Below the pieces are notes generated by a model. The model was not told where the DNA came from, did no database searches, and saw nothing but the letters and a program-made list of their open reading frames with translations. A program made the position numbers and the translations under genes. A stretch of DNA of 7,575 nt, taken from Caldifarciminota bacterium. Lineage in GTDB: Bacteria > WOR-3 > Hydrothermia > UBA1063 > CAJXJZ01. Numbering within the stretch: position 1 is the first letter of the stretch; each line of letters begins with the position of its first letter. The stretch spans positions 1 through 7,575 of the forward strand of contig JALTEL010000338.1 in NCBI GenBank assembly GCA_027073945.1, written 5' to 3'. Positions 1-7,575 of the stretch are shown piece after piece.

Positions 1-2671
1 TGTTCGTTCTGTGCCAGTTACCTTGAATATACCATTGACCGGATATGGGCTGCTCAAAATTCTCACTAAAGCTGGTTCCAGTCAGAGATATGTAGAGTGT
101 TTCCACCTGCTGCTGTATTTCCTGAGATTGTGCTGACATGAGCACCGGAACCACGCTGGGGAGGTTTATTGATGAGTCAGTGTAGAATATAAGCGAAAAA
201 GAGTCTGTATGTGCGGCAGGAAGAGAATCAAAGGAAAATGGCCCTGGAGTTACGATGTATAAATGGGAAGATGGTGTACCCAAAAGTATTCGGAGGCAAT
301 TTGCCGTGCCCTGTCCCTGGTTCTTAATGTACATGACAACATACTGTGTGTCCCCGGGCACAATAGCCGTTTGCCGGGAGGTGTATGTCTCAAATTTTAT
401 CTCTGGCAGCTTTACGGGAATGTTAAGGGTGTTTCGCTCCCCGTTCATATCAATTTTCAGGGAAATGCTACTGTTGGGAACTATGGTATCATTGACAATT
501 CCCGTTATTTTTAAAGTCAGAATATTTTCGGGCAGTATCGTGTCTGTGTACGAAAATCCCGTGGAGTCAGGATTAAATCCGTTATAACTCAACAGTGATG
601 CTGTCAGCCCCATAACAGGAGTAGTGCTGATATTTTTTATATGTATATCGAGTTCTATGTACTCACCCGGTTCGGCATAACCATTTCCGTCGGATAAGTT
701 ATCCACTATTTTATATCCCGTGATTGCAAGAACAGCGGTATCGGAATTATTATATATCCATTTTTGAAAGACATTATGATTCTCTTTAAAACAGGTGAGA
801 AGCACAGAGTCCATAGTTATATCGTTTATGTGTATGGATATGCTTCCTGTATTATCTGTCTTTCCACTGTAAATCAGTGAATCTCCATAGGTGAGAGTGC
901 ATGATGCCTCCCCTATAGGTCCATTGTTATCGGACACATAGGCAGACAGAATTCCTCCGTTATCAAAAAAACTACTGCATTCCACGTTGAGATTACGTGA
1001 TTCTTCTGTTCGTATGTTCATTTCAGGATCTCCAAGCAGGTTCAGTTGATACTGGTGCCATCTGTAGACATTGGCCGAGCGCGAAAATGGTATGAATGCA
1101 CTTTTTGCATTTGCAAGCGTTCTTCCTATTTTATAAATTGAGTCTGCAAAAAGCTTTCTGTAAAACATACGATCAAATCTATCCGAATAGCCGAAAAGCG
1201 GATTTCCAGGCGATCCCCAACCATAGCGTGAATTGCCTATGAATGCCACGACTCCCCCCTGTGGATTTCTTATAAGGTGCTCGGATATTGCGTCGTAATC
1301 AAATGCGCCTACCCAGCATCCAATTGAGTAGAGCACACCGATTCTGTTTCCATTTTTGAGAGTATCTGCATCACCTCTTGATATATATTCCCAATTCGGT
1401 GCACCGTTGACCCACATACCGGAATACCAGCCGTGTCCGTTGTGATTCAGGATGCCCTGTCCATTGTTGATGGCATTTAATACTGTATTGTGATTTTCAT
1501 TTCCATTAGCCTCGTATAATTTTTCAACCGAGTAATTGGCAGGCATGAAAATGCTATCAATATAATCCTTACTCTCTGCCGAATTGGTGTAAGGGTCACT
1601 CCACAATATCATTGCAAAGAACAGGGCTCTGTCAAGGTAATCCGAAGTTGGATTTTTTTCATAATTAACGATTTTTGAAGAAAACACGGAGGCTTCCTCT
1701 GCACTTCTTACAGGTGCCCTGCCTGCATAAATATCCGGATAAAGGTCAACAGAATCGGATACCTCTCCGAATATTCCATTGTTATTGGAGTCCCAAGTGC
1801 CATCGAGATCTTCAAAATACAGATCTGCCCTTAAACTGTCCTCATCTGGCATATAACCCGCATCACTTTTCATGGCAAATGCAATGCGTGCCGGTACGAA
1901 GTCAACATCCCCGCCTAAAAGAACGTATTTAAGACCTGAATCCTCGTACATAATTTTCAGGTAATTTCTTAATCTTTCGGCATCATCCCTGCCTGTGTAA
2001 TGTGAACTTACCCATTGCATAGTTCTTGTTTTTACTCTGTATCCCTTCTGCACCTTCCATTTAATCAATTCTGAGAAACCTTGAACAAAATTCTGGTCGG
2101 TGATGATAAGATACAACGGAGTATCCCACACAGTTGGAATGGAAAGAGCTGAGTTTTCGTCGTATGATATTTCAAATTTTATATTGTGTATTTCAAAAAG
2201 GGTTTTCTTTACATTATTATATTGGTACGGGTATATGACAACATAAGCCTCATATCCATTGCCTGTTTTTCTGTATCCGGACAATTGTACAACATTTTGA
2301 GGGTAAATATCAAAATTCGTTGTCTGTGCTTTAGGCGTTTTATATTTAAACAGAAAACCTGCGGATATCGGACGAGCTGCGGGAAGCTCATAAATTTGAC
2401 ATCCCGAACAGATTTTTTTCTTTTCTGTGTATAAAATTTTGACATGTTTTGGTATGCCATTAATGTGATATGTGTTCACAAGTGCAGGAATTGCTGGCAT
2501 ATACGGTCTGTATGGGTAGAACATTAACGGGGCAATAATCTTTACACGCCCATTTTTTGTTGTTAAAACGGCAGGTTTTGTTGTATTGCGCCATGTATAC
2601 ACATTCGAACCGAAATTAAGTATGAATAATGTGAATATAACAGGCATCATAAGGGCTCTATTATAAAGCAT
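1..2671 (-). CDS. Secreted gingipain-like C25 family cysteine peptidase, 3' end outside window (partial)
   Basis: Translating the complement from the ATG at 2671 gives 890 residues with no stop to the left edge. A hydrophobic N terminus (PVIFTLFILNFG, about 10-21) looks like a signal peptide. Residues about 28-180 resemble the C25 propeptide (YPQNVVQLSGYR, VVIYPYQYNN, IKFEISY). The peptidase domain spans about 182-551: LLGGDVDFVPAR (251-262), an Asp/Asn-rich DLDGTWDSNNNG segment (288-299) that may bind calcium, PDIYAGRAPV (312-321), catalytic His413 in NHNGHG, catalytic Cys452 in SIGCWVGAFD, and the closing LLGDPEM (545-551). Then come an Ig-like domain (about 556-640), two CARDB-like domains (about 647-750, with DGNGYAEPGEYIEL, and about 760-845), and the start of a jelly-roll-like domain (FSENFE, 868-873). 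A sorting signal, if present, is off the window. It is probably an exported protease. The start is uncertain: ATGs at 2650 and 2647 also leave a signal peptide, and no clear ribosome binding site precedes any of them. Confidence 0.92.
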   Translation of the reverse strand, partial: MLYNRALMMPVIFTLFILNFGSNVYTWRNTTKPAVLTTKNGRVKIIAPLMFYPYRPYMPAIPALVNTYHINGIPKHVKILYTEKKKICSGCQIYELPAARPISAGFLFKYKTPKAQTTNFDIYPQNVVQLSGYRKTGNGYEAYVVIYPYQYNNVKKTLFEIHNIKFEISYDENSALSIPTVWDTPLYLIITDQNFVQGFSELIKWKVQKGYRVKTRTMQWVSSHYTGRDDAERLRNYLKIMYEDSGLKYVLLGGDVDFVPARIAFAMKSDAGYMPDEDSLRADLYFEDLDGTWDSNNNGIFGEVSDSVDLYPDIYAGRAPVRSAEEASVFSSKIVNYEKNPTSDYLDRALFFAMILWSDPYTNSAESKDYIDSIFMPANYSVEKLYEANGNENHNTVLNAINNGQGILNHNGHGWYSGMWVNGAPNWEYISRGDADTLKNGNRIGVLYSIGCWVGAFDYDAISEHLIRNPQGGVVAFIGNSRYGWGSPGNPLFGYSDRFDRMFYRKLFADSIYKIGRTLANAKSAFIPFSRSANVYRWHQYQLNLLGDPEMNIRTEESRNLNVECSSFFDNGGILSAYVSDNNGPIGEASCTLTYGDSLIYSGKTDNTGSISIHINDITMDSVLLTCFKENHNVFQKWIYNNSDTAVLAITGYKIVDNLSDGNGYAEPGEYIELDIHIKNISTTPVMGLTASLLSYNGFNPDSTGFSYTDTILPENILTLKITGIVNDTIVPNSSISLKIDMNGERNTLNIPVKLPEIKFETYTSRQTAIVPGDTQYVVMYIKNQGQGTANCLRILLGTPSSHLYIVTPGPFSFDSLPAAHTDSFSLIFYTDSSINLPSVVPVLMSAQSQEIQQQVETLYISLTGTSFSENFEQPISGQWYIQGNWHRTN

Positions 2672-2732: not shown

Positions 2733-5432
2733 TTAACCTGTAGCTTTTAAATACATTTCTGTAACAAATCTTGATACATTGGCTGTATATCCCCTCCTTT
2801 TTCGGGGCCTCAGCAGGTACAGGGTTTCCTGTGCCCTTGTTATTGTTACATAAAAAAGTCTTCTCTCTTCCTCTATATCCTCAATTGTCGCAGTGTTTTT
2901 GAGCAGCGGGAAAACACCGTCAACAAGTCCGATTGCAAATACAACCGGGAATTCAAGCCCCTTGCACTTATGGGCGGTCATAACGGCAACTCCGTTTGTG
3001 GTTTCGGACTCTATACTAAGCTTTTGTAAAACGTTTATTTCGGATATGGCTTTTCCAAATTCATTAAAAGAAAATTTAGATAAAAATTCCATCATCTCCA
3101 TAATGTTTTCGTATTCCTGCTGTTTTGCGGGAGTGCCTTCATTTTTCAATTTATCAATATATTTCCATTTATTGATGACTTTTTCAACTGCAAAAAGAGG
3201 AGTGATTTCACGATTTAATGCTTGCTTTTTGATATTTTCAAGGAATTTACAGGCAAGGTTGGCGTCTCGCATCATCTTGGAGGTGTAAAGTGATTCGTTA
3301 AAAGTCTTATTCGTTAGCTTATTGTAAATAATATCCTGCACATCGGAGAGATTGTCATATCCCGGTAGATTCCGTAAAAACTTTTTGAGCATTATGCTGA
3401 TATCTTCTTGTGTGGCGCACCCATGGGCAAATTTTAGGACAGCAGTAAGCGCCTTTATCTCATCTCTTTCGTAAAACCCTCCTTTGCCTATTATGTTGAA
3501 TGGGATACCTTTTGAAAAAAATGCCTCTTCAATATTCCTTGATTGGCTGTTTAACCTGAAGATTACAGCCATGTCTTCATAATTATACCCTTTATCTTTC
3601 AACTCACTTACGGTATCGGCCACAAATACAGCTTGAGAGCGCTCATTTTCCAGATCTTTATATATAACCTCACCCTGTGTTTTTGAAAGAGAAATCATTA
3701 TTTTTGGTATCTTATCCTTATTATGTGATAGTAAATTGTTGGCAAGCACAAGTATATTGTCAGGGACTCTGAAACTCGCGGTAAGGTAAAATCGCTTTAC
3801 ATGTTCTGATTTCACATTTTCAAGGTCCCTGATAAAATCCGGTTTTGCCCCCCTGAATGTATAAATCGATTGGTCATCATCTCCTGTTATAAAAAGGTTT
3901 TTATGGCGGCTTGATAGCAGTTTTAAAAGTTGGAATTGAGCGGTATCAATGTCCTGAAATTCATCTACAAGCACATGTTTGAAATTGGTTGAGAACATTG
4001 TAAGTAAATCTCTATTCTCTGTTAAAATCTTTACAGCATAGTAAATAATATCACCGAAGTCGATTAAATTCCGTTGTCTCATCACATTTTGATAGGTATT
4101 ATAGGTCTGAGCCACAGCTTTTTCCCACTGATTGCCCGCCAATTTGTGATAGTTTTCGGGACTTATCAGGTTTGTTTTTGCTCTTTCAATAGCCTTTAAA
4201 TATGCTTTCACTCTATTATAGGAGTTCCCGGACATAATATTGGTCAGCAATTGCATGCTATCCTCATGGTTTAACACCGTTAACTTCTCGCTGTCGAAGT
4301 CTATGCGCTCTGCCCCCTTTGCCACGATTTTAAGACCAACGGAATGTAATGTCCCTGTCCACAAATCGTCCATATTGCTGTCAGACAAGATTGTTGATAG
4401 TTCTTCTTTTAGCCTGTTTGCAGCTTTTACGGTGAATGTAACTGCAAGTATGCGAGAGGGGGGAACATGCCTGTTTTGAATGAGATAGGCTACCCTTCTT
4501 GTAAGGGTTAAAGTCTTGCCCGTACCTGCCCATCCTATTACAAGTGTTATACCGTCTCCGTTTACAACTGCGGATTTTTGTTCCTCTGTGAGCCCCGAAA
4601 GCGATGATGTATTTGCAGACTTTTTCAAAACAGGGTGGAACTTAAATTCACTTTTATCCACTTTGCCAATAAGGGCTTTCTTGAACTCGTTGCATGTCTT
4701 GAATCTGTGATTTGACCTTTTTGAGGTGGATGTTCGTATTGCCTTCATGAGAAATGGTGGAATCCCGTTAATTTTTCTTATTCTACCATTGAATATTTTT
4801 GTTCTCAATGCTTCCATTGATTCTGCATTGAAAGGAGGATGCCCTGCCAGCATTTCATACAACACTATGCCAGCGGAATAAATATCCGATTGCCTTGTGG
4901 ATTTACCTGTCCACATCTCACGCGCCATATAAATAGGAGTTCCTGCCATTGACAGAAGCATTGAATTGCTGCCTGCGATACCTGCAAGTCCGAAATCTGC
5001 TACTTTTACAATGCCTCTGGAATTTATAAGGATATTCTCTGGTTTTATGTCTCTGTGAAGAACACCTCTATCATGGGCGTATTGAACGGCGTCAAGGACC
5101 TGCATGATGATATTGACAGCAGTATCTTGTGATAATTTTCTTTCACGTTCTATTTTTGCTCTTAATGACTCACCATCCACAAATTCTGTAACAAGCACCA
5201 CTTTCCCATCTATAATATCAACTGAAAAAAATCTCAGTATATTAGGATGTTCGAGCTCTATCAGCATTTTTGCCTCTCTCTTTAACATTTCAATGTCTTT
5301 TGAGCGTTGCCTTGGAATTTTAAGTGCGACCTGCTTTTCAATAATTGTGTCCACTGCCAGAAATACATCACTGAATTGTCCCCCGCCGAGCCATTTAATT
5401 ATGCGAAATTTTCCTAAATGTTCACCTATCAT
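2733..5432 (-). CDS. Ser/Thr protein kinase fused to UvrD/PcrA-like SF1A DNA helicase
   Basis: This 899-residue protein has an ATG at 5432-5430 and a TAA at 2735-2733. Residues 1-255 form a Hanks-type kinase: glycine loop GGGQFSDV (16-23), lysine K38 in VALK, probable helix-C glutamate E53, catalytic loop HRDIKPEN (126-133), DFG (146-148), activation segment GTPIYMARE (164-172; the usual APE is ARE here) and SDIYSAGIVLYE (182-193). A short linker (about 256-280) leads to a UvrD helicase: Q motif LTEEQKSAV (281-289), Walker A GWAGTGKT (300-307), Ia VTFTVKAA (331-338), Ib GTLHS (360-364), DEFQD (490-494), GDDDQSIYTFRGA (517-529), the ASFR region (552-555), TAHKCKGLEFPVV (819-831) and EEERRLFYVTITRA (854-867). 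Family knowledge predicts phosphotransfer plus ATP-driven 3'-5' DNA translocation in the cytoplasm. No transmembrane segment or extracellular PASTA sensor is seen. The start is fixed by the kinase N terminus and the ATGA overlap with the upstream STAND-TPR gene; I see no strong Shine-Dalgarno, which fits coupled translation. The substrate is unknown. Confidence 0.95.
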   Translation of the reverse strand: MIGEHLGKFRIIKWLGGGQFSDVFLAVDTIIEKQVALKIPRQRSKDIEMLKREAKMLIELEHPNILRFFSVDIIDGKVVLVTEFVDGESLRAKIERERKLSQDTAVNIIMQVLDAVQYAHDRGVLHRDIKPENILINSRGIVKVADFGLAGIAGSNSMLLSMAGTPIYMAREMWTGKSTRQSDIYSAGIVLYEMLAGHPPFNAESMEALRTKIFNGRIRKINGIPPFLMKAIRTSTSKRSNHRFKTCNEFKKALIGKVDKSEFKFHPVLKKSANTSSLSGLTEEQKSAVVNGDGITLVIGWAGTGKTLTLTRRVAYLIQNRHVPPSRILAVTFTVKAANRLKEELSTILSDSNMDDLWTGTLHSVGLKIVAKGAERIDFDSEKLTVLNHEDSMQLLTNIMSGNSYNRVKAYLKAIERAKTNLISPENYHKLAGNQWEKAVAQTYNTYQNVMRQRNLIDFGDIIYYAVKILTENRDLLTMFSTNFKHVLVDEFQDIDTAQFQLLKLLSSRHKNLFITGDDDQSIYTFRGAKPDFIRDLENVKSEHVKRFYLTASFRVPDNILVLANNLLSHNKDKIPKIMISLSKTQGEVIYKDLENERSQAVFVADTVSELKDKGYNYEDMAVIFRLNSQSRNIEEAFFSKGIPFNIIGKGGFYERDEIKALTAVLKFAHGCATQEDISIMLKKFLRNLPGYDNLSDVQDIIYNKLTNKTFNESLYTSKMMRDANLACKFLENIKKQALNREITPLFAVEKVINKWKYIDKLKNEGTPAKQQEYENIMEMMEFLSKFSFNEFGKAISEINVLQKLSIESETTNGVAVMTAHKCKGLEFPVVFAIGLVDGVFPLLKNTATIEDIEEERRLFYVTITRAQETLYLLRPRKRRGYTANVSRFVTEMYLKATG
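5429..5432 (-). other. ATGA stop/start overlap (translational coupling)
   Basis: On the minus strand the bases read ATGA. The TGA ends the STAND-TPR gene and the ATG begins the kinase-helicase. The preceding bases are A-rich (AACAAAAA) with no evident GGAGG. This fits termination-reinitiation by the same ribosomes and supports a two-gene operon with linked expression. Confidence 0.85.
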
Positions 5433-7575
5433 TTTTTGTTTTCATAAGTATATAATACTTCAATAAGTTTTTTATGCCAGTACACTGCCCCTATTGTATC
5501 GAAAATTTTAAGGGATTTTTTGAAATTTGCTTTGGCATCAATGGGCTTATTCATTTTTTCATAGAGTTTGCCCATATAGTAATATGATTTTCCGAGGTCG
5601 AAATTCTGTCCCAATTGGGAAAATACATTTATACTTTTGGTTATATACCCCGCTGCTGTGTCATATTCTCCTTTTTCCATACTCAACCTACCCTCTGCAA
5701 GCCTCAGGTCTCCCTCAAACGATTTTGACCTCAAAGAAGTTTCCATATCTTTTAATTTTACAAGGAGATTTTCTGCATTTTCCATATTCCAAACAAGCAT
5801 ATTGTATTCAAATAAATTAAGCAAAACTTCTTTCAACATGCCTGTAGAGCCCGTTTGTTCGGCCATGGATTTTGCCCCTTCAAGAAATTTTTGTGCCTCT
5901 TCTGCATTATCTAAATCAAGGTACAATTCAGCAGTATCAAGTAAATTAACAAAAGCAAGGTAGTTTTCCTGAATATCCTTTACCTTCTCTCTTACTTCTC
6001 TGTAAATTGCAAGTGCCTTTTTCATATCACCCTTTATGAAGTGAATTTCTCCTATACTCTCTATGCTCCATAGGTACAGACTTTTCTCTTCTACCATTTC
6101 GGATATGTCCCTTGCCCTGTTATAAAGCTCCAGAGCTTCTGCAAGCTTTCCTGTTGTTTTGTATATGAGTCCTGAGATAATCAAAGATGCACATAAGGCT
6201 GAAGCATCACCTATTTCTTCTGCTACATTGATGGATTCATTGGAATAAAGAAGTGCCTTTTTGTAATCTCCAGCATCCAGATAGAGAGCCCCGATATTGC
6301 TAAGTACGGAATCCTGAACTCTTTTATCGTTGATTTCTCGTGTGATTTGCAGAGATTCGTTGTATAATTTCAGTGATTCTTCATAATTTCCCATTCTGTT
6401 ATGAATAATTCCTATATTGTTTAAAACACCTGCTATCCCGGATTTGTTATTGCTTTTTTCATAAGCATCCCTTGCCTTTTTTAAGTAATTAAAAGATTTC
6501 TCATACTCTGAAAGATACATATAAGATACGGCTATTATGTTCAAGGCATTTGCCTCTCCCTTTAGATTTTCCGTTTTTTCATATATTGAGAGAGATTTTT
6601 GGGCATATTCTATAGCTTCTCTGTATTTCGAGATGGAATTATGGATATAAGCCAATCTACTTAAGAAATCTGCCTCCATCTCTTGATCTTGCAAATTTTT
6701 GGCCAGCCTGATGCCTTCCTCTGCATCTTTAAGTGCTTCTTCATTTTGCCCTGTAAGCATGAATACATCAATACGACCCATCAAACATTGAACAGTATAA
6801 TGTGCATTCTGACTATCCTTTTTGTTTTCTATCAGCTGCATTGCCCATTGATAATATTTGAGAGCATTTTTATTTGCATACTTCTCCTTTGTAACCTTCC
6901 CTGCCATGACACAGTATTTTATCCCTTTTTCATATTCCCTCGCCCTGTAATAATGATATGCCAATTCCTCCACAAAGGCTGTTATTTTCTTTGTATTTTT
7001 CAGTTCTATGAAATCTGCCACCTTTCTGTGCAATAGTCGCCTTCTTATAGGTGATATGTATTTGTTATATATAACATTTCTTGTGATATTTTCCTTGAAA
7101 ACAACGGCATTTTCAGTTTCATGCAAAAGCCCTGTTTTTTCTATTTTATCAAGCAGGCCTATAATGTGTCCTTCATTATAATTGAGTAAATGCCTCAAAA
7201 GTTCAGTATTGATGCTTCCAACAACACTGCTTATTTTTAGTACTTCTTTTGCCTCCTCTGATAGAGACTGGTATTTTCTGTTGGTTATATCCTCAATGCT
7301 CCTTGGCACTATTCCATTCTTGGGTACATCAAATATCCATGCGCCATCTGAGATGTGCAGGTTCCTTTTTTGATACAGTTCTCTTGCAATTTCTTCGATG
7401 TATAACGGGTTTCCTCCGCTTTCTTGCTGTATATAATGTGCCAGTGACGGCAGAGCATATCCGCCCAGTATGGCATTGATGCTCTCTTTAATATAGGAAT
7501 ACTCAAAAGGAGGCAGGGAATATTCATTTATGTTCGTATATCTGCCTATGTCCTGTAAAAAGGATTCAACCTGAG
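5429..7575 (-). CDS. STAND/AAA_16-type ATPase with winged-helix segment and TPR array, 5' end outside window (partial)
   Basis: The frame is open from the right edge to a TGA at 5431-5429, giving 714 visible residues (residue 1 = bases 7573-7571). Residues 1-88 read as the C-terminal part of a STAND/AAA_16 NTPase; the stretch SGGNPLYIEEIARELY (52-67) is the family's conserved GNPL(F/Y)xEE segment. It is followed by VPRSIEDI and LSEEAKEVLKISSVVG (about 89-119), the usual entry to the winged helix, and by an arginine-rich RRRLLHRKVADF segment (about 177-188), also typical. From residue 201 to the end are about 12-13 TPR units. Walker A and B must lie upstream, outside the window. Related proteins (PknK, MalT/LuxR-like regulators, adenylate-cyclase-associated ATPases) often carry an N-terminal kinase, cyclase or DNA-binding domain, so the output cannot be told from here. 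A GTG at 7309 could be taken for a start, but family-consistent coding continues upstream of it. The gene overlaps the kinase-helicase start by four bases. I see no frameshift. Confidence 0.9.
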   Translation of the reverse strand, partial: QVESFLQDIGRYTNINEYSLPPFEYSYIKESINAILGGYALPSLAHYIQQESGGNPLYIEEIARELYQKRNLHISDGAWIFDVPKNGIVPRSIEDITNRKYQSLSEEAKEVLKISSVVGSINTELLRHLLNYNEGHIIGLLDKIEKTGLLHETENAVVFKENITRNVIYNKYISPIRRRLLHRKVADFIELKNTKKITAFVEELAYHYYRAREYEKGIKYCVMAGKVTKEKYANKNALKYYQWAMQLIENKKDSQNAHYTVQCLMGRIDVFMLTGQNEEALKDAEEGIRLAKNLQDQEMEADFLSRLAYIHNSISKYREAIEYAQKSLSIYEKTENLKGEANALNIIAVSYMYLSEYEKSFNYLKKARDAYEKSNNKSGIAGVLNNIGIIHNRMGNYEESLKLYNESLQITREINDKRVQDSVLSNIGALYLDAGDYKKALLYSNESINVAEEIGDASALCASLIISGLIYKTTGKLAEALELYNRARDISEMVEEKSLYLWSIESIGEIHFIKGDMKKALAIYREVREKVKDIQENYLAFVNLLDTAELYLDLDNAEEAQKFLEGAKSMAEQTGSTGMLKEVLLNLFEYNMLVWNMENAENLLVKLKDMETSLRSKSFEGDLRLAEGRLSMEKGEYDTAAGYITKSINVFSQLGQNFDLGKSYYYMGKLYEKMNKPIDAKANFKKSLKIFDTIGAVYWHKKLIEVLYTYENKK
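5450..6973 (-). repeat. TPR repeat array within the STAND-TPR protein
   Basis: This stretch encodes tandem helix-turn-helix units of about 34-40 residues with the TPR signature (small residue, then Y/N, two variable residues, A, then an amphipathic helix ending in a hydrophobic pair). Recognisable second helices include REYEKGIKY, NKNALKYYQWA, QNEEALKDAEEG, SKYREAIEYAQK, SEYEKSFNYLKK, GNYEESLKLYNE, GDYKKALLYSNE, GKLAEALELYNR, GDMKKALAIYRE, NAEEAQKFLEG, GEYDTAAGYITK and KPIDAKANFKKS. The central units, with about 40-residue spacing, resemble the LGN/Pins-type TPR subclass. They are protein repeats with diverged DNA, not identical nucleotide copies. Such arrays usually form a superhelix that binds peptides or partner proteins, and in STAND proteins they act as the ligand-sensing part. 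Confidence 0.85.

What the first reader, a model, noticed from the sequence alone, without database searches (positions are those of the whole stretch)
2733..5432. Hanks-type Ser/Thr kinase fused in one frame to a complete UvrD/PcrA-like helicase
The sequence shows one uninterrupted 899-codon frame with kinase motifs (K38, HRD, DFG) followed after a short linker by all main SF1A helicase motifs. Bacterial Hanks kinases are usually fused to sensor domains (PASTA, TPR, WD40) or STAND ATPases, and UvrD-like helicases are usually fused to nucleases. A kinase on a UvrD motor is an uncommon arrangement as far as I know. It suggests either that the kinase controls the helicase by autophosphorylation, or that DNA engagement by the helicase switches the kinase on to signal damage or invading DNA.
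Basis: partly seen in the sequence, partly recalled or inferred. Interest (0 to 1): 0.85.

Follow-up and report, generated by a model that had tools for sequence, protein, structure and literature searches.

The report
Protein kinase fused to DNA motor
This gene joins a signalling enzyme (a serine/threonine kinase) to a DNA-travelling motor related to the repair helicase PcrA, in a family of related bacterial proteins; it may let the cell turn contact with exposed single-stranded DNA into a phosphorylation signal, but this has not been tested.

Summary
Window 5432-2733 (minus strand) is one 899-codon gene: an intact Hanks-type kinase (residues 11-255), a flexible linker, and an SF1A UvrD/PcrA-like motor (281-890). 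It is not an assembly artefact: 86 other protein clusters carry the same fusion at 32-48% identity, both catalytic sites are conserved and the linker is 21-28 residues in 80 aligned members. Of 8 relatives with an organism name, 6 are candidate division WOR-3. Kinase parts and helicase parts each form one group in trees, so the fusion probably arose once.

"Complete UvrD/PcrA-like helicase" needs one correction. The motor motifs are complete, but the 2B GIG loop is missing, the separation-pin stretch is four residues shorter and the C-terminal extension is gone. The helicase also diverges faster than its kinase, unlike separate PcrA and PrkC. I read it as a kinase whose sensor is a single-stranded-DNA motor, activated when copies meet on DNA (inferred). 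Upstream, overlapping by 4 bases, lies a GGDEF-AAA_16-TPR gene, a possible partner. My searches found no paper on this fusion. Biochemistry is untested.

The parts
2733..5432 (-). Kinase-helicase fusion gene, 899 aa
   Evidence: 86 related fusion clusters
4668..5402 (-). Hanks-type Ser/Thr kinase domain (residues 11-255); K38, E53, HRD 126-128, DFG 146-148 intact; activation-loop T165 invariant in 80; APE proline is R171 here (P in 79 of 80)
   Evidence: PDB relatives S. aureus PknB/Stk1 and StkP
4593..4667 (-). Variable linker (residues 256-280), 21-28 residues in all 80 aligned members, pLDDT under 50 at 258-275
3816..4592 (-). UvrD N-terminal motor part (residues 281-539): Q motif, Walker A, DEFQD, motif III
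2814..3788 (-). UvrD C-terminal motor part (residues 549-873): motifs IV to VI
2991..3437 (-). 2B subdomain (about residues 666-814, boundary set by alignment to PcrA), lacks the PcrA P-x-RGIG loop
2766..2840 (-). Motif VI TRA to SRF stretch (residues 865-889) that holds the separation-pin hairpin in UvrD; 25 residues against 29 in PcrA
5429..7573 (-). Upstream gene, 5' end cut by the window; full-length near-twin P0125 (1 difference in 714) is GGDEF - AAA_16 - TPR, 1066 aa; overlaps the fusion start by 4 bases (ATGA)

Best explanation
A single-polypeptide DNA-responsive kinase. Step 1: the UvrD/PcrA-like half binds single-stranded DNA and moves on it with ATP (inferred from intact motifs). 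Step 2: without the GIG loop, with a shortened pin and without the RNA-polymerase-binding tail, it is not an ordinary repair helicase; it works mainly as an ssDNA sensor and translocase (inferred). Step 3: when two or more copies load on a long enough stretch of ssDNA, their flexibly tethered kinase domains meet and phosphorylate each other's activation loops, as PknB-type kinases are thought to do (inferred from relatives). Step 4: the active kinase phosphorylates itself and nearby replication, repair or signalling proteins. Steps 1 to 4 are inference; shown here are the architecture, its conservation, its grouping as one set in the sampled trees, and the altered motor.
For: Both catalytic sites intact across the family. 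Flexible linker of near-constant length. Kinase identity 0.505 against helicase 0.378 in fusions, kinase higher in 99.4% of 3081 pairs; in 29 Bacillota genomes the separate PrkC kinase has 0.547 and PcrA 0.525, kinase higher in 73.4% of 406 pairs; at matched kinase identity (0.50-0.60, mean 0.535, 1086 pairs) the fused motor core is 0.450 against 0.607 for PcrA. GIG loop: present at its place in 0 of 75 testable fusions (12 of 87 untestable), against 26 of 28 testable PcrA at the same offset and one more at another offset (30 examined). Pin stretch 25 residues in 67 of 70 parsable fusions (of 87) against 29 in 24 of 25 parsable PcrA (of 30) (a first parse gave 61 of 70 and 25 of 25). Eleven kinase positions are fusion-specific, among them W174 just after the APE motif, which hints at a conserved substrate. 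Precedents: YabT, a Hanks kinase activated by DNA binding that phosphorylates RecA (passages of PMC3708118), with a model of DNA-promoted dimers (passages of PMC6333020); UvrD-family monomers translocate on ssDNA and are activated by dimerising (passages of PMC13238157).
Against: No biochemistry. The model's pTM of 0.65 gives no domain docking. GIG loss need not remove unwinding: mutating one GIG glycine stimulated 3'-5' unwinding in D. radiodurans UvrD, and the GIG-duplex contact is described as autoinhibitory in monomers, with the role of the pin also questioned. The 2B region where UvrD1 dimerises is itself altered here, which weakens the dimer step. A short pin stretch is not peculiar to fusions: the one parsable of five other unfused UvrD-like proteins, L084, also has 25 residues. 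Faster helicase change could reflect adaptation or paralogy. The rate and motif controls come from another phylum, and 7 of those 30 PcrA score under the curated PcrA cut-off.
Confidence: 0.42

Rival explanations
1. The kinase is the switch and the helicase the output: autophosphorylation, for example in 2B or the linker, turns the motor on or off in response to another signal, perhaps from the upstream GGDEF-AAA_16-TPR protein.
For: UvrD-family helicases are regulated through 2B and by partner proteins (passages). The motor keeps all ATPase motifs. The upstream gene overlaps by 4 bases and encodes a likely sensor protein.
Against: 2B is the least conserved helicase part (0.234 mean identity; it is also the least conserved in PcrA, 0.349) and the linker is variable, so no conserved phosphosite is evident there. 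I would expect the output half to be the better conserved, and it is the worse.
Confidence: 0.25
2. A defence protein: it senses invading or damaged phage DNA through the GajB-like motor and phosphorylates targets to stop growth.
For: PADLOC's best helicase hits are GajB models (298 bits) and its best kinase hits are PD-T4-6 and MADS6 models. GajB also lacks the GIG motif and pin (passages of PMC10681800). A separate kinase gene next to a small UvrD-like gene occurs on a viral-collection contig, L069, with weak matches to PADLOC's models C3a189 'kinase' (47 bits) and C3a187 'NERD+UvrD' (80 bits).
Against: NCBIfam's best match for the protein is PcrA, 427.7 bits, and PADLOC models are loose for such common domains. 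The two neighbours in the window match no defence or mobile-element family in Pfam, and only generic TPR models in PADLOC; this is one locus of 7.6 kb. No place covers at least 80% of the protein in any of 712 plasmid and 111 phage records with a match.
Confidence: 0.13
3. It is simply the lineage's housekeeping PcrA, tethered to a kinase that phosphorylates replication or transcription partners wherever PcrA goes.
For: Motor aligned end to end with PcrA 1pjr (residues 278-880; TM 0.84 by target). The family is diverse (32-48% identity to the window).
Against: Below PcrA's curated NCBIfam cut-off (427.7 against 911.2 bits); a group separate from 15 PcrA in the tree; lacks the GIG loop and the C-terminal extension; diverges faster than PcrA relative to its kinase.
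Confidence: 0.15

Closest known systems
PcrA/UvrD SF1A DNA helicases (PDB 1pjr, 4c2t, 3lfu)
   Same: All motor motifs; best sequence and fold match
   Different: No GIG loop in 2B, pin stretch four residues shorter, no C-terminal extension, kinase at the N-terminus
PknB/PrkC/StkP Hanks-type kinases
   Same: Kinase fold and catalytic residues
   Different: No PASTA match in the protein; helicase in its place; eleven family-specific kinase positions
YabT of Bacillus subtilis
   Same: Hanks kinase with a DNA-contacting module, proposed activation through DNA and dimers (passages)
   Different: YabT binds DNA by a basic juxtamembrane stretch and is membrane-anchored; here the module is an SF1A motor
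GajB of Gabija
   Same: UvrD-like, lacks GIG motif and pin (passages)
   Different: No kinase; no ATPase or unwinding was detected for GajB in that paper; no GajA-like family among the neighbours in this window
RqkA of Deinococcus radiodurans
   Same: A DNA-damage-responsive Ser/Thr kinase (title and start of abstract of PMC6052341 in the listing; that this kinase is RqkA rests on the term count there and on recall)
   Different: Not compared by sequence here; no helicase fusion is mentioned in what I saw

Membership tests
Hanks-type Ser/Thr kinase | Pkinase fold with catalytic Lys, Glu, HRD, DFG | tested here: met
SF1A UvrD-like motor | Q motif, I, Ia, II, III, IV, V, VI (motif names recalled) | tested here: met
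   85 of 87 pass four coarse patterns (kinase, Walker A, DExQD, motif VI) and 2 lack motif VI
PcrA (NCBIfam TIGR01073) | score above curated cut-off 911.2 bits | tested here: not met
   427.7 bits; 7 of the 30 free-standing PcrA used as control also fall short
PcrA/UvrD | GIG loop in 2B | tested here: not met
   at its place in 0 of 75 testable fusions of 87, in 26 of 28 testable PcrA of 30
PcrA/UvrD | C-terminal RNA-polymerase-binding extension | tested here: not met
   protein ends 10 residues after SRF; conserved PcrA tail columns are gaps in 80 of 80; role of that tail from titles and abstract starts in the listing
PcrA/UvrD | ATP-dependent unwinding | not testable with these tools
   needs purified protein
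Gabija GajB | adjacent GajA nuclease | tested here: not met
   neighbours are GGDEF-AAA_16-TPR and a C25 peptidase; one locus only
PASTA kinase (NF033483) | score above 450 bits | tested here: not met
   216.3 bits, kinase part only
MADS6 and BREX PglW kinases | score above NCBIfam cut-off | tested here: not met
   168.3 of 460 and 92.6 of 990 bits
DNA-activated kinase (YabT-like mode of action) | DNA-stimulated autophosphorylation | not testable with these tools
   needs a kinase assay

The most novel reading that the evidence does not exclude
A bacterial DNA checkpoint kinase in one chain: the SF1A motor measures the length or persistence of single-stranded DNA, and only when two motors occupy the same strand do their kinases activate each other and broadcast a phosphorylation signal, a bacterial counterpart in logic to ATR-type signalling in a lineage where the alarm need not run through RecA and LexA.
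Probability: 0.22. Interest if true: 0.88.

Novelty: new variant of a known kind. Interest (0 to 1): 0.6.

Why it matters
Known bacterial Hanks kinases mostly carry extracellular or scaffold sensors (recalled). A conserved family with a DNA motor as the built-in partner would be a direct physical link between DNA processing and Ser/Thr phosphorylation, and a tractable one: a single protein of about 100 kDa whose kinase can be assayed with and without defined DNA. It also offers a natural example of a UvrD-family motor without the GIG loop, useful for the current debate on what 2B does.

Tried and rejected
Assembly artefact or lost stop between two genes: rejected, 86 further fusion clusters with the same join.

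Pseudokinase or dead helicase: rejected at the level of motifs. R171 in place of the APE proline is peculiar to the window (1 of 80) and unexplained.

Fusion on plasmids or phages: no place covers at least 80% of the query in 712 plasmid and 111 phage records with a match. Of the 76 loci of the viral-contig scan, none has one open frame with both a kinase HRD motif and a UvrD DExQD motif; the one matched range that lies well inside both parts, L069, is two separate genes.

Conserved operon with the GGDEF-AAA_16-TPR gene: not supported beyond this window. By eye, no contig length listed for the relatives of that protein equals one listed for a fusion; this is weak, since only the longest contig of each cluster and the best 120 hits are shown.

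Genome context in WOR-3: could not be reached. No genome is held for the window; the one genome-contig scan returned one locus, a Peptoniphilus PcrA-like helicase. A search of 101 genomes around that organism gave 0 of 101 at E 1e-200, which without a positive control says little.

Literature: searches listed no paper; one search listed one and two, and the passages on UvrD and kinase in these three do not describe this fusion, on kinase, UvrD and NERD in defence, listed none. The library holds open-licence PMC papers only. One search gave WOR-3 papers; 'helicase' does not occur in the main text of either of the two I searched, 'UvrD' was searched in PMC12542636 only and does not occur.

Rfam: 0 families in the window. 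Promoter-like and terminator-like hits exceeded shuffles (21 against 10.0, 6 against 2.5) but I rely on none.

Weak points in my counts: the pin pattern failed in 17 of 87 fusions and 5 of 30 PcrA; a first parse began at an earlier TR in some rows and was redone, where one PcrA came out at 20. The GIG segment could not be cut in 12 of 87 fusions (none of these has RG[IVLA]G anywhere) and 2 of 30 PcrA; one PcrA has the motif at offset 68 and one lacks it. Three fusions (P0041, P0044, P0047) have a TGIG at offset 68, just before the E-Y-E-N that lies near residue 775 of the window protein, and P0074 an RGLG at offset 82; I took these as other places. One search stopped with an error after its two main groups. 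The helicase tree used 40 of 80 fused rows and 15 of 30 PcrA, a simple model and a quick search; the 36 unfused kinases came from the same similarity searches. The alignment A1 left out 7 of the 87 fused clusters (P0007, P0010, P0011, P0028, P0034, P0086, P0087), near-copies or incomplete ones.
Full report
Observation. The minus strand of the window carries, at 5432..2733, one frame of 899 codons from ATG to stop (sequence). Pfam places a protein kinase at residues 11-255 and the two UvrD helicase parts at 281-539 and 549-873. The nearest solved structures are PcrA 1pjr for 278-880 and, for the kinase, S. aureus PknB/Stk1 (2-255) and StkP (6-254). An AlphaFold2 model from an 80-sequence alignment has mean pLDDT 88.5 and pTM 0.65; stretches under 50 lie only in the activation loop (150-161) and the linker (258-275), and 47 further residues lie between 50 and 70. 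Foldseek matches the helicase part to PcrA 1pjr (TM 0.84 by target; DNA-bound UvrD structures match less well, about 0.65) and the kinase part to PknB. The two domains are thus well modelled, their mutual position is not.

Is it real? A search of 5.8 billion proteins lists 87 clusters (P0001, the window's own, and 86 others) whose Pfam column includes both kinase and UvrD, at 32-48% identity to the window for the others; the remaining 33 of the 120 rows shown have one of the two only. A profile of 80 of them listed no further fusion at E 1e-100, though only the 7998 candidates sharing most words were scored in each search. Eight relatives bear an organism name: six candidate division WOR-3, one 'bacterium', one 'Candidatus Pacearchaeota archaeon'.

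Conservation. In the 80 aligned members E53, HRD 126-128, K130, N133, D146 and G148 of the kinase, and G303, G305, K306, T307, D490, E491, Q493, D494 and the core residues of motifs III and VI of the helicase are invariant; K38 is present in 79 of 80. A coarse pattern check over all 87 finds kinase, Walker A, DExQD and motif VI in 85; two lack motif VI. The linker is 21-28 residues in all 80 and not conserved in sequence. In a tree of 80 fused and 36 unfused kinases the fused ones are one side of a branch (SH-aLRT 99; the tool warned of long branches among the unfused rows); in a tree of 63 helicases the 40 fused ones used are one side of a branch (100) and 15 PcrA another (98). Pairwise identities of the two halves correlate (Pearson 0.86, Spearman 0.65; Pearson 0.54 for separate PrkC and PcrA). 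One fusion event followed by joint descent is the simplest reading.

What is changed in the motor. The control is 30 PcrA proteins from 30 of 31 genomes drawn from the phylum of G001, the genome of L001, whose title says Peptoniphilus (Bacillota, recalled); 23 of the 31 genomes pass the curated PcrA cut-off. Against these the fused helicases lack the P-x-RGIG loop of 2B: it stands at one and the same offset in 26 of 28 testable PcrA and at another in one more, and in 0 of 75 testable fusions; 12 fusions were untestable and have no RG[IVLA]G anywhere. The stretch from motif VI to SRF that includes the separation pin is 25 residues in 67 of 70 parsable fusions and 29 in 24 of 25 parsable PcrA; a glycine invariant in PcrA is a gap in 79 of 80 fusions there. 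One unfused small UvrD-like protein, L084, also has 25, so this trait is not unique to fusions. The C-terminal tail of PcrA is absent in 80 of 80; papers listed (titles and abstract starts only) tie it to RNA polymerase. For D. radiodurans UvrD, passages of PMC3797037 say that the pin is critical for unwinding, that the GIG motif serves duplex binding, and that mutating Gly424 of it stimulates 3'-5' unwinding while reducing 5'-3' unwinding. A 2026 review (passages of PMC13238157) treats the GIG-duplex contact as autoinhibitory, dimerisation as activating, and doubts the role of the pin. So the loss of the loop may mean a pure translocase or a de-repressed helicase; the sequence cannot tell which. 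GajB also lacks GIG and pin, and no ATPase or unwinding was found for it in one study (passages of PMC10681800); here every ATPase motif is kept.

Which half is the output? Mean pairwise identity is 0.505 for the kinase and 0.378 for the helicase across fusions (79 sequences, 3081 pairs, kinase higher in 99.4%). In 29 control genomes the separate PrkC kinase and PcrA core have 0.547 and 0.525 (406 pairs, kinase higher in 73.4%). Restricting fusion pairs to kinase identity 0.50-0.60 (1086 pairs) gives helicase 0.383 and motor core (1A and 2A) 0.450, against 0.607 for the PcrA core. The fused helicase is therefore under weaker or more varied constraint than PcrA, relative to its kinase; the control is from another phylum, so depth of sampling may play a part. 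Eleven kinase positions are at least 90% fixed in fusions and at most 25% in 66 unfused kinases, including W14 and D22 around the glycine loop and W174 right after APE. I take this as a hint of a conserved partner or substrate of the kinase.

Mechanism. Best supported is a DNA-responsive kinase: the motor binds and walks on ssDNA; loading of two copies lets tethered kinases trans-phosphorylate; the active kinase modifies proteins at the site. The steps are inferred from intact motifs, the flexible tether, the evolutionary asymmetry, and two precedents: YabT, which is activated by DNA, phosphorylates RecA Ser2, and is modelled as DNA-promoted dimers (passages of PMC3708118 and PMC6333020), and the dimer activation of UvrD-family enzymes. 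Rivals are a kinase-controlled helicase, a defence protein, and a housekeeping PcrA with a kinase passenger; they are set out with their tests in the rival list.

Surroundings. The fusion start overlaps the stop of the upstream gene by ATGA, which suggests translational coupling. That gene is cut by the window edge; a near-twin from another contig, P0125 (1066 aa, 713 of 714 shared residues identical; listed without source), shows a GGDEF domain with an RYGGDEF motif and an RxxD motif five residues before GGDEF (the meaning of RxxD as an inhibitory site is recalled), an AAA_16 ATPase and TPR repeats. It may be a signalling partner; I could not show that the pair is conserved. Downstream lies a C25-family peptidase (2671..2, Peptidase_C25 E 2.3e-65), probably unrelated.

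Known or new? Five searches of the paper library found no description (the three papers listed were checked by passages). Where a source names a member, it is as 'UvrD-helicase domain-containing protein', 'PcrA' or 'hypothetical protein'. Both domains are well known kinds; the conserved combination and the altered motor make it a new variant of a known kind. Interest 0.6: an uncommon, clearly conserved and directly testable link between DNA processing and Ser/Thr phosphorylation, held back by the lack of genome context and of any biochemistry.

Noticed in passing
window 5429-7573 and P0125: Upstream gene is a GGDEF - AAA_16 - TPR protein (GGDEF motif intact in the near-twin P0125). The ten best other relatives have 29-35% identity; nine of the ten list a GGDEF domain and one (P0132) is named diguanylate cyclase-like.
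   Followed up: partly
L069:9776-13779: On a viral-collection contig, a kinase gene (472 aa), a small UvrD-like helicase gene (387 aa) after a 15-base gap, and a 469-aa gene overlapping it by 4 bases with no Pfam match; the first two weakly match PADLOC models C3a189 (kinase) and C3a187 (NERD+UvrD). An unfused analogue of the pair, maybe a defence system.
   Followed up: partly
window 4920-4922 (residue 171): The APE motif of the kinase reads ARE in the window (P in 79 of 80 aligned fusions, the window being the exception); unexplained.
   Followed up: no
window 2-2671: C25 (gingipain/PorU-like) peptidase gene on the same strand; the listed ORF start (2671) lies just before a TATAAT at 2665-2660, so the real start may be the ATG pair at 2650-2645 (sequence; by eye).
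   Followed up: no
P0119: A 1100-aa UvrD protein whose helicase begins at residue 493; the residues before it match no Pfam family at E 0.001.
   Followed up: no
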